Source: a virus. From it: DNA of 23,086 bases. The stretch lies in IMG/VR virus record IMGVR_UViG_3300027659_000217, positions 1 to 23,086 of that record. The stretch is one strand, 5' to 3'. Below, one piece after another: positions 21-12,257 of the stretch. Each line of letters starts with the position of its first letter. Within the stretch, counting starts at the first letter, position 1. The position numbers were made by a program, and so were the translations under genes. The notes below the pieces were generated by a model that made no database searches, was not told where the DNA came from, and was given only the letters and a program-made list of their open reading frames with translations.

Positions 21-94
21 TGGAGCGGGGTAGGAGAATCGAACTCCTCGCTTTAGCTTGGAAGGCTAAGGTATTACCACTATACGAACCCCGC
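21..94 (-). tRNA. tRNA-Gly (anticodon TCC)
   Basis: The reverse complement folds as a full cloverleaf. The acceptor stem GCGGGGT pairs with ACCCCGC, the anticodon loop CTTCCAA carries TCC, the T arm is intact, and CCA is encoded at 23-21. It is the last of three tRNAs (Asn, Leu, Gly) that probably share a transcript with the 59-aa gene upstream. The discriminator base reads T. Nothing recognisable lies between it and the window edge. Confidence 0.95.
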
Positions 95-111
95 ATATCT
101 TTACTTATACT

Positions 112-188
112 TGGTGCCCCAGGGGAGACTCGAACTCCCAAAATTTGGCTTCTAAGACCAACACGTATACCAATTCCGTCACCAGGGC
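112..188 (-). tRNA. tRNA-Leu (anticodon TAG), short variable arm
   Basis: The acceptor GCCCTGG pairs with CTGGGGC, allowing G-U pairs. The anticodon stem-loop is TTGGT-CTTAGAA-GCCAA with anticodon TAG. The T arm is GGGAG-TTCGAGT-CTCCC and CCA is encoded. The D arm (GACGGAATTGGTATACG) looks leucine-type. Only five bases (ATTTT) separate the anticodon and T stems, whereas bacterial tRNA-Leu normally has a long class II variable arm. Identity is assigned from the anticodon and D arm. Confidence 0.9.
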
Positions 189-194
189 AAAATC

Positions 195-270
195 TGGCTC
201 CCCAGGGTGGGATCGAACCACCGACACGTTGATTAACAGTCAACTGCAACTACCGCTGTGCTACTGGGGA
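195..270 (-). tRNA. tRNA-Asn (anticodon GTT)
   Basis: The acceptor TCCCCAG pairs with CTGGGGA, the anticodon loop CTGTTAA carries GTT, the T arm is GGTGG-TTCGATC-CCACC, and CCA is encoded at 197-195. It is first in the three-tRNA cluster, 10 nt downstream of the stop codon of the 59-aa gene, so it is probably co-transcribed and processed from that message. Confidence 0.95.
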
Positions 271-509: not shown

Positions 510-535
510 TGCCTTATGGTGGTCAAAATCTAGTT

Positions 536-804
536 TGACGCAGGCTCGTCAGGGGAGACACTGCATTTTCATCCAAAAGTATTCTGTAACACACTATTTG
601 TTAATCTTGCCCGAGCCCGTGTGCTCGGGAACCAAAGGATAGTGTGTTATAGAATACCCTGCGTTACCGCAGGATATGACAGGGTCGATACCCTGCCCTG
701 ATTCTTACTCCCCACGTTATCGCCGTGGGTTTCATGCTTCAGTACGCCCGTTTGCCAGTGTTTATAGTGCCTAGCGTGGACCTCGTTTCCACCTTTTTAC
801 ACTG
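536..804. ncRNA. candidate multi-helix structured RNA region
   Basis: This non-coding stretch is dense in complementary segments. Hairpins are 536-540/547-551, 610-616/623-629 (7 bp), 658-663/668-673, 680-685/690-695, 711-716/724-729 and 776-780/788-792. A 19-bp helix pairs 579-597 with 639-657 and carries the 610-629 hairpin in its loop. A closing helix 549-554/696-701 would join three of these arms in one junction with almost no unpaired bases between them. Helix 756-761/799-804 forms a second domain. Strand evidence conflicts: position 586/650 is G-U on plus but C-A on minus, while the 664-667 loop is a GNRA loop (GTAA) only on minus. It lies 6 nt beyond the 53-aa gene's stop codon. I cannot assign it to a known family. 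Confidence 0.55.
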
Positions 805-810
805 CTAAAA

Positions 811-972
811 TTATGCGTAAGTTCGACTGTCAACTCGTTTGCGAGTTTCAAAGTTTAGCCTAGCACGTTCTAACTTATCCCGAATCAACTTGTTACGCTG
901 TTCAGGTGTCAGAGTGTACTCTGTCGTAAACCTTACCTCACGCATTCGTCGTTTTAAATCTATCTTCCTCAT
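811..972 (-). CDS. small basic protein, 53 aa, downstream of the structured leader
   Basis: The frame runs from ATG at 972 to TAA at 813-811 and is preceded by the strongest Shine-Dalgarno in the region (AAAGGAG, about 4 nt before ATG). The 53-aa product begins MRKIDLKRRMREV and is rich in Arg, Lys and Glu. The segment TLTPEQRNKLIRDKLERARL is probably helical. No family is recognised; charge and size would suit a nucleic-acid- or host-protein-binding early protein, which is inference only. The gene starts 18 nt beyond the T-run of a Rho-independent terminator, so its expression should depend on read-through of that terminator. A structured RNA region begins just past its stop codon. Confidence 0.75.
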   Translation of the reverse strand: MRKIDLKRRMREVRFTTEYTLTPEQRNKLIRDKLERARLNFETRKRVDSRTYA

Positions 973-990
973 AATCTCCTTTACATAAAC

Positions 991-1019
991 AAAAACCCCA
1001 GGGTTTTTAATCCTGGGGT
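991..1019 (-). terminator. Rho-independent terminator (possible attenuator)
   Basis: On the minus strand, ACCCCAGG (1019-1012) pairs with CCTGGGGT (1002-995) around a 9-nt A-rich loop. A TTTTT run follows at 995-991. It lies after the structured leader and 18 nt before the 53-aa gene. An upstream GGGGTCC at 1073-1067 can instead pair with GGACCCC at 1021-1015, which would break this stem. Confidence 0.85.
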
Positions 1020-1046
1020 CCTTTAGAGTTTTTTGTAGTGTTGTTT

Positions 1047-1187
1047 TTACGCTACAAGATCCTCCTGGACCCCGGTCACCTCTGGTGTACGATCATTACT
1101 TAGGCTAATCGCAGACCAATAGGTGGGCATAAAGCCTGCCTGTTTGGCTATGCAATGTTGCGATAATAATGATCTTGTGTTTTTCAT
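1047..1187 (-). CDS. possible 46-aa leader peptide overlapping the structured leader
   Basis: An open frame of 46 codons (ATG at 1187, TAA at 1049-1047) covers most of the structured leader. It begins MKNTRSLLSQHC and ends TGVQEDLVA. There is no Shine-Dalgarno, and the start lies about 4 nt after the expected transcription start, so translation would be nearly leaderless. Several late genes in this window also appear leaderless, so it cannot be dismissed. A translated leader peptide could itself work the downstream attenuator. The long nested helices across the same bases argue equally for RNA function. Treat it as a low-confidence gene. Confidence 0.3.
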   Translation of the reverse strand: MKNTRSLLSQHCIAKQAGFMPTYWSAISLSNDRTPEVTGVQEDLVA

Positions 1188-1197
1188 AACAGTTTCT

Positions 1198-1226
1198 ATT
1201 GTAATTTATTTAGTCTTTGTTGTCAA
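1198..1226 (-). promoter_or_regulatory. sigma70-type promoter for the structured leader
   Basis: On the minus strand, TTGACA (1226-1221) is followed after 17 bp by TACAAT (1203-1198). Transcription should start near 1191. The spacer contains GACTAAATA, also found just after the -35 box of the gp32 promoter. Confidence 0.8.
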
Positions 1227-11732: not shown

Positions 11733-12257
11733 ATGTCTGACGTACTGCTGTTGAACAGCGATTACAATCCAATTTCAGTTTTACCTCTAAGTGTTATCGG
11801 TTGGCAACATGCTGTCAAACTATATTTCTTGGAGCGCATCACTGTGGTTGAAGAATATGAAAACTGGGTAATTCGTAGTGAAAATTTCAGCATGAATGTG
11901 CCCTGTGTTGCAGTTACCAAAGAATACTTCCACTTTAAAAAGTCAGCGAAGTTTTCCCGTAGTAACATGTTCTTGCGAGATATGTACCAATGCCAGTACT
12001 GTGGCGAAGTTTTCGAGCATAAAGAACTTACTCTGGATCACGTAATCCCACGTGCTCAAGGAGGTAAGACTACCTGGGAAAACAGTGTAACAGCCTGTAA
12101 AAATTGTAATCACAAAAAAGGACACAAGCTGATTAAACCACTACGCACACCATATAAGCCAGATCACTTCCAATTAATTAAAAAATGGAAGGAACGGTCT
12201 GTACAAGTGCGACACGAGAGTTGGTATCAATATTTGGGCATTAAGCCAAAGTCTTAG
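11733..12257 (+). CDS. HNH endonuclease, 174 aa
   Basis: HNH proteins cut DNA with a His-metal finger. The 174-aa protein has an N-terminal domain (VLLLNSDYNPISVLPLS) common to free-standing bacterial and phage HNH proteins. The HNH core has Cys87-x2-Cys90, LDHVIPRAQGG with Asp102-His103, Asn117 in WENSV, and Cys122-x2-Cys125 followed by NHKKGH. All key residues are intact. It lies on the opposite strand to its neighbours with its own sigma70-type promoter, and its stop overlaps that of the convergent 69-aa gene by 3 nt. HNH proteins beside terminases can assist packaging in other phages; a homing or host-DNA-degrading role is equally possible. No intron is seen. Confidence 0.9.
   Translation: MSDVLLLNSDYNPISVLPLSVIGWQHAVKLYFLERITVVEEYENWVIRSENFSMNVPCVAVTKEYFHFKKSAKFSRSNMFLRDMYQCQYCGEVFEHKELTLDHVIPRAQGGKTTWENSVTACKNCNHKKGHKLIKPLRTPYKPDHFQLIKKWKERSVQVRHESWYQYLGIKPKS

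What the first reader, a model, noticed from the sequence alone, without database searches (positions are those of the whole stretch)
536..804. Junction-type large structured RNA beside the tRNAs
A 19-bp helix with a capping hairpin, two more hairpins and a closing helix 549-554/696-701 fit together as a multi-arm junction with nearly contiguous (stackable) arms; a second domain closes with 756-761/799-804. Large structured phage RNAs (for example GOLLD and ROOL) are often found near phage tRNA genes. No protein frame explains it. Strand is unresolved: a G-U favours plus, a GNRA loop favours minus.
Basis: partly seen in the sequence, partly recalled or inferred. Interest (0 to 1): 0.75.

Follow-up and report, generated by a model that had tools for sequence, protein, structure and literature searches.

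The report
New structured RNA heading phage tRNA arrays
Beside the phage tRNA genes lies a compact, elaborately folded RNA, conserved in more than a hundred uncultured phage contigs and missing from the RNA family database, that sits at the start of tRNA gene arrays behind a switch that can stop transcription.

Summary
The RNA is encoded on the minus strand (about 804 to 576, plus a module to 512). A DNA pattern from its core hits 115 viral contigs; all 12 hits in 84,980 prokaryote genomes are chance. On 62 distinct sequences a nested 38-pair structure is 96.9% paired, 31 of 38 pairs change on both sides, and no shuffle matches that. A pseudoknot has permutation z 14.9. Helices P6 and P7 share four nucleotides and both pairings covary, so they look like alternatives. 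No Rfam 15 family matches, GOLLD and ROOL included. Nine searched isolates (eight jumbo phages and T4) lack it.

104 of 116 contigs have tRNAs downstream on the same strand, median about 20, up to 41. Upstream lies a conserved operon head: a sigma70-type promoter, a short, often leaderless reading frame with a Trp codon (58 of 58), and a covarying antiterminator/terminator.

Best reading: a new class of structured RNA, transcribed as the first segment of an attenuated phage tRNA operon. Whether it acts in cis on that transcript or as a released RNA is open.

The parts
1198..1226 (-). sigma70-type promoter, TTGACA (1226-1221), 17 nt, TACAAT (1203-1198)
   Evidence: Sequence; similar promoters upstream of the RNA in 56 of 71 distinct loci against 5 of 71 on the reverse strand
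1047..1187 (-). leader reading frame, 46 aa, with one Trp (TYWSAISLSNDRTPE); ATG about 10 nt after the -10 box, so nearly leaderless
   Evidence: Leader frames in other loci: all 58 found contain Trp, 55 exactly one; 35 start 6-11 nt after the -10 box
1067..1073 (-). antiterminator 5' strand GGGGTCC, pairs with 1021-1015
   Evidence: Own pairing beats swapped pairing at z 13.8 over 73 loci
990..1021 (-). intrinsic terminator ACCCCAGG/CCTGGGGT plus T-run; its 5' arm overlaps GGACCCC of the antiterminator
   Evidence: Terminator-like hairpin upstream of the RNA in 74 of 74 loci, at the leader position in nearly all; strict terminators 60 upstream against 1 in 246 kb downstream
811..972 (-). small conserved reading frame, 53 aa, between terminator and RNA (absent where the terminator abuts the RNA)
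   Evidence: 23 loci found with this protein alone; 22 of 22 with enough sequence carry the RNA directly after it
576..804 (-). structured RNA core (P1, P2, pseudoknot, P4-P7 with cap)
   Evidence: Covariance model R1 186 bits; covariation
766..803 (-). P1: 5' strand AGTGT 803-799 pairs with GCACT 770-766
   Evidence: mostly conserved sequence, some covariation (AATG/CATT, ACGTGTG/CGCACGT)
776..792 (-). P2 hairpin GTGGA/TCCAC with 7-nt loop AACGAGG
   Evidence: Inner three pairs 100% paired in A1, six pair types at the innermost pair
754..775 (-). pseudoknot helix GCTAG (775-771) with CTGGC (758-754)
   Evidence: Permutation z 14.9 over 78 distinct sequences
743..753 (-). near-invariant single-stranded AAACGGGCGTA
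   Evidence: Invariant or nearly invariant columns of A1; part of the search pattern, so partly built in
698..742 (-). P4 domain: CTGA/TCAG outer helix, inner hairpin 729-711 with 7-nt loop, GAA...AGTA internal loop resembling loop E
   Evidence: P4 100% paired with both-side changes; the loop E likeness is by eye only
678..697 (-). P5 hairpin
   Evidence: 97% paired, 7 of 7 pairs with both-side changes
654..677 (-). P6 hairpin, GUAA loop; its last four nt (657-654) also pair with 582-579
   Evidence: 98.9% paired; alternative pairing also covaries
579..657 (-). P7 long helix (657-639 with 597-579) enclosing the variable cap 638-598
   Evidence: Helix in most of 96 unique homologs, cap 4-82 nt; 96.7% paired
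512..575 (-). 3' module P8: outer helix, GGATGA, hairpin with loop CCCTGAC, second hairpin
   Evidence: Similar modules after P7 in other clades, for example L117, L135, L178; no covariation test run on it; fold in the window z -2.2 only
21..270 (-). downstream tRNAs Asn, Leu, Gly of the array (contig ends here)
   Evidence: ARAGORN, Rfam

Best explanation
It is a new class of structured RNA of about 190-290 nt that forms the first untranslated segment of a phage tRNA operon, on the minus strand. RNA polymerase starts at a host-type promoter, makes a short, nearly leaderless leader frame with a Trp codon, and meets a terminator whose 5' arm can be captured by an upstream antiterminator. Read-through gives the structured RNA and then the tRNA array. 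Shown: fold, strand, position, and the covarying terminator/antiterminator. Inferred: a ribosome that reaches the leader stop hides the antiterminator and transcription ends; a ribosome stalled earlier, plausibly at Trp, lets transcription continue. Inferred: RNase P cleavage at the first tRNA frees or trims the RNA's 3' end, since P7 often abuts that tRNA. Inferred and least certain: the RNA works mainly in cis, as a head element that keeps the long untranslated transcript from being ended by Rho or degraded, as leader RNAs of rRNA operons and the EAR or put elements do (comparison from general knowledge).
For: Covariation: 38 pairs, 96.9% paired, 31 with both-side changes, 0 of 500 shuffles, slid versions 32-50%; pseudoknot z 14.9. 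Strand: 186 against 27 bits. Position: 104 of 116 contigs have tRNAs downstream on the same strand, 1487 tRNAs same strand against 0 opposite; no tRNA upstream in 56 of 90 with at least 2 kb held, and the first tRNA starts within -1 to +12 nt of P7's end in 22 of 88. Independent retrieval: loci found only by the 53-aa protein carry the RNA in 22 of 22, twelve of them as a divergent subtype. Attenuator. One copy per contig in 13 contigs up to 354 kb. In loci such as L166, L196 and L218 the terminator directly abuts P1, leaving little room for a separate promoter.
Against: No expression data. Only one strict intrinsic terminator lies in 246 kb of downstream array, so a put- or EAR-type element would have to act on Rho or decay. 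In the window's clade a good promoter (TTGACA 509-504, 17 nt, TATACT 486-481) lies between the RNA and the next gene and tRNAs, so those tRNAs need not depend on read-through. The variable, swapped caps and the shared P6/P7 strand fit a freestanding RNA or switch as well. The search pattern was built from the core, so core conservation is partly selected.
Confidence: 0.5

Rival explanations
1. Freestanding trans-acting RNA. The RNA is co-transcribed with the tRNAs, cut out by RNase P and other nucleases, and accumulates as a stable particle, alone or with protein, doing a job during infection like that still sought for GOLLD and ROOL; the cap is an exchangeable specificity domain.
For: Near-invariant unpaired core sequences and a pseudoknot typical of tertiary folds; caps differ strongly between otherwise similar RNAs and carry a recurring 7-nt-loop UGA hairpin in 33 of 83 against 3.7 expected; 3' end abuts a tRNA in 22 of 88. 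GOLLD and ROOL are also found near tRNA islands and have variable linkers (PMC12286853).
Against: Mostly at the 5' head of the array, same strand, right after the terminator, which a trans role does not require; no transcript data.
Confidence: 0.33
2. Processing leader. P7 is a long double-stranded stem for RNase III, and the P6/P7 strand exchange opens or closes the 5' leader of the first tRNA for RNase P.
For: P7 is 15-27 bp with conserved sequence, and four nt shared with P6 covary with both partners; in several loci P7 abuts or overlaps the first tRNA by up to 2 nt.
Against: Compact subtypes lack P5 and P6, and many loci have 60-700 nt between P7 and the first tRNA; it does not explain the invariant core.
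Confidence: 0.12
3. Chance folding or a degraded coding or mobile sequence.
For: None beyond the lack of known homologs.
Against: Covariation in 62 distinct sequences, conserved position, independent retrieval.
Confidence: 0.01

Closest known systems
GOLLD RNA (RF02032)
   Same: Structured RNA of phages and prophages, often beside tRNA islands; has a variable linker region that sometimes holds tRNAs (PMC12286853)
   Different: GOLLD members often exceed 800 nt (model 416 positions); no match; this RNA is 190-290 nt with a different fold and sits at the array head behind an attenuator
ROOL RNA (RF03087)
   Same: Phage or prophage RNA near tRNA islands, pseudoknotted, function unknown
   Different: Model 574 positions; no match in the window; different architecture
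T4 stable RNAs rnaC and rnaD
   Same: Small stable RNAs in a phage tRNA cluster
   Different: In T4 they lie at the far 3' end of the array; model R1 finds nothing in T4
Ribosome-dependent transcription attenuators, for example leaderless trpL of Sinorhizobium meliloti (PMC7298713)
   Same: Leader frame starting at or near the transcript start, Trp codon, antiterminator/terminator switch
   Different: One Trp codon instead of several consecutive ones, a 40-60 aa leader, and it guards a structured RNA plus tRNA array instead of biosynthesis genes
Cis-acting antitermination RNAs (HK022 put, Bacillus EAR)
   Same: Structured element near the head of a long transcript (comparison from general knowledge)
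   Different: No Rfam likeness found; antitermination not shown; almost no intrinsic terminators downstream

Membership tests
GOLLD | match to the Rfam covariance model RF02032 | tested here: not met
   no match in the window even at E 10; ten homologous loci likewise gave no GOLLD match
GOLLD | large size (often above 800 nt) with conserved 3' and variable 5' region | tested here: not met
   Homologs 184-286 nt from P1 to P7
GOLLD | location near phage tRNA genes | tested here: met
ROOL | match to the Rfam model RF03087 | tested here: not met
   Searches show no match; no control genome rang, so that call alone is weak
GOLLD or ROOL | assembly into RNA-only oligomeric cages | not testable with these tools
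   Needs cryo-EM or native gels
Ribosome-dependent transcription attenuator (upstream part) | translated leader frame between promoter and terminator | tested here: inconclusive
   Frame in 58 of 70 leaders, all with Trp, stop 17-33 nt before the terminator arm; translation itself not shown
Ribosome-dependent transcription attenuator (upstream part) | mutually exclusive antiterminator and terminator | tested here: met
   Own against swapped pairing z 13.8
Ribosome-dependent transcription attenuator (upstream part) | run of several codons for the regulating amino acid | tested here: not met
   55 of 58 have exactly one Trp
Ribosome-dependent transcription attenuator (upstream part) | read-through that responds to leader translation | not testable with these tools
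   Needs a reporter assay
put or EAR antitermination RNA | binds RNA polymerase and suppresses downstream termination | not testable with these tools
   Only position is compatible; downstream intrinsic terminators nearly absent

The most novel reading that the evidence does not exclude
A new structural class of phage RNA that heads tRNA arrays and acts on its own transcript or on the translation machinery, under control of a nearly leaderless Trp leader-peptide attenuator: a phage tRNA operon that senses host translation and carries its own RNA machine with an exchangeable cap.
Probability: 0.5. Interest if true: 0.9.

Novelty: categorically new. Interest (0 to 1): 0.82.

Why it matters
Large phages carry dozens of tRNA genes, and how these untranslated arrays are switched on and kept transcribed is little studied. 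Here a covariation-supported RNA class and a covarying attenuator with a Trp-containing leader frame sit together at the head of such arrays in about a hundred uncultured phage contigs. That gives a directly testable model of phage tRNA operon control, and a third phage RNA class, beside GOLLD and ROOL, tied to tRNA genes. It was not found in the cultured phages tested, so it would be missed by work on those isolates.

Tried and rejected

GOLLD, ROOL, tmRNA or any Rfam family: no relevant match. One weak tmRNA hit in L129 overlies the tRNA-Tyr next to the RNA.

tRNA-like cap: a T-arm hairpin appears in only two genuine caps (L129, L217); the L142 and L216 cases are real downstream tRNAs in caps my script misread. 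The tRNA-looking cap of L106 has no tRNA match. Dropped as a general feature.

Intrinsic terminators inside the array as targets of antitermination: only 1 in 246 kb, so a put-like role against intrinsic terminators is not supported.

Cellular genomes: 12 pattern hits in 84,980 species genomes all lack the rest of the fold.

Isolates: blastn with consensus queries gave nothing convincing in 50,697 phage records; model R1 found nothing in eight jumbo isolates and T4, with stricter filters.

P1 by permutation is not significant (z 1.5) because AGTG/CACT is nearly fixed; it rests on individual covariants.

About nine of the unique hits have a truncated, odd or undetected P7 in my script (for example L139, L142, L171, L175, L183, L188, L216).

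Paper searches for this RNA or for attenuation of phage tRNA operons found nothing. A large published catalogue of candidate viral RNAs that I recall was not found in the library, so an unnamed prior listing is possible.

Full report
Setting. The window is a 23 kb fragment of a large tailed phage (tail sheath, tail tube, terminase, UvsX, UvsY and single-strand binding protein). Its closest isolates by UvsX and terminase are jumbo phages such as Atu_ph07, Phosso and the PA5oct group. Five tRNA genes lie at the low end, all on minus. No Rfam family other than tRNA is found, and a permissive search of the region gives only noise.

Observation. Both strands fold better than shuffles (z -5.0 plus, -6.1 minus), largely because of the 19-bp helix. 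Fold energy alone does not settle strand or structure, so I looked for homologs.

Homologs. A neighbouring protein and UvsX brought in related viral loci, of which about a dozen align across the region. A DNA pattern from the shared core matched 115 viral stretches and 12 stretches in 257 billion bases of prokaryote genomes; the latter lack every other part of the fold and serve as the chance background. The viral hits long enough to use reduce to 96 unique and 78 distinct (<90% identical) sequences. As an independent check, the 53-aa protein upstream, used alone, found 23 loci; all 22 with enough sequence carry the RNA directly after it, twelve of them as a divergent subtype scoring 48-67 bits. 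Of six UvsX-retrieved loci with three or more tRNAs, four carry it, one as a divergent form.

Structure. In a 62-sequence alignment a nested structure of 38 pairs is 96.9% paired; 31 pairs change on both sides, no shuffle of 500 reaches any of the five measures, and sliding the partners drops pairing to 32-50%. A pseudoknot lies upstream: P1 (AGTG/CACT, mostly fixed) encloses hairpin P2 with its constant AACGAG loop and the 5' strand of a second helix whose 3' strand lies just before AAACGGGCG. That helix is rewritten from clade to clade (GCTAG/CTAGC, GTGATT/AATCAC, TAAAGT/ACTTTA and so on), with a permutation z of 14.9. Four nucleotides at the 3' side of P6 also pair with the end of P7. Both pairings covary on the same columns (triples ATA/GCG and TGC/GCG/ATA), so they are alternatives, consistent with strand exchange. 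Compact members lack P5 and P6.

Strand. Model R1 gives 186 bits on minus and 27 on plus for the window. About 164 paired cells are G-U in the minus reading. All tRNAs near the RNA are on its strand: 1487 against 0.

Position. 104 of 116 contigs have tRNAs downstream on the same strand, 103 of them with the next tRNA within 1 kb; most of the others end soon after the RNA. Where at least 4 kb is held, the median downstream count is 18-20 tRNAs, up to 41. In 56 of 90 contigs with at least 2 kb upstream no tRNA precedes it; where tRNAs do precede it, the nearest lies 446 nt or more away. In the window the promoter, leader and terminator lie between. In 22 of 88 the first tRNA starts at -1 to +12 of P7's end. 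Thirteen large contigs up to 354 kb hold one copy each (the weak reverse-strand hits are P7 read backwards).

Upstream switch. A terminator-like hairpin lies before the RNA in 74 of 74 loci with enough sequence, either directly before P1 or about 150-330 nt away with the 53-aa type frame between. With strict criteria 60 terminators lie upstream and only 1 in 246 kb downstream. A strand 26-53 nt upstream pairs with the terminator's 5' arm and covaries with it (own score 20.2, swapped 15.6, z 13.8; shuffled 12.8). A sigma70-like promoter is found in 56 of 71 loci against 5 of 71 on the reverse strand. Between promoter and terminator 58 of 70 leaders have an open frame with a nearly constant stop position; every one contains Trp, 55 exactly one, and 35 start 6-11 nt after the -10 box, so they would be nearly leaderless. 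The frames were picked by script and translation is not shown. A leaderless Trp leader frame has a precedent in S. meliloti trpL (PMC7298713).

Interpretation. Shown: a new structured RNA class on minus, its fold, its tie to tRNA arrays, and a conserved terminator/antiterminator ahead of it. Inferred: co-transcription, translation-dependent read-through, RNase P release. Open: what the RNA does. I favour a cis role on the long untranslated transcript because of its nearly constant head position and strand, but a released trans-acting RNA is almost as likely. In the window's own clade a second promoter (509-481) can serve the tRNAs without it.

Known relatives. GOLLD and ROOL share the habitat (phages, tRNA islands; PMC12286853) but not sequence, size or fold. 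T4 rnaC and rnaD lie at the other end of the T4 array and do not match. Library searches found no description; most subscription papers and preprints are not held, so novelty is relative to these sources.

Noticed in passing
window 1226-990, minus: Leader-peptide attenuator ahead of the RNA and tRNA array: promoter, nearly leaderless frame with one Trp and a conserved NDRTPE-like stretch, antiterminator and terminator, conserved across loci. Possibly a finding in its own right.
   Followed up: yes
window 509-481, minus: Consensus-like promoter TTGACA, 17 nt, TATACT between the structured RNA and the next gene, which could drive the 59-aa frame (460-281) and the tRNAs independently.
   Followed up: no
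window 460-281, minus: 59-aa frame (MKTTSTFKLSKTVKTMLATGRF...) between RNA and tRNAs; a similar frame follows the RNA in L205. No PHROG match.
   Followed up: no
window 811-972, minus: 53-aa frame with weak match to phrog_20536 (unknown function), present between terminator and RNA in many loci and absent in those where the terminator abuts the RNA.
   Followed up: partly
window 11733-12257, plus: HNH-type endonuclease frame, the only evident gene on plus, next to the terminase; looks like a homing endonuclease insertion.
   Followed up: no
L055 10160-10345: Divergent relative with AACGCG instead of AACGAG in the P2 loop and no P5/P6, behind the same kind of attenuator (leader with QYW) and in front of 18 tRNAs.
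   Followed up: partly
L127 about 1040-1220, minus: A second copy of the P7 5' arm (GCCATATTAAAACACATTG) appears downstream of the first cap, hinting at duplicated cap modules.
   Followed up: no
RNA core, window 753-743: The near-invariant ACGGGCGG is complementary to the universal 16S rRNA stretch CCGCCCGT near the decoding site (from memory). It could be chance, and the fourth base of AAANGGGCGG varies.
   Followed up: no
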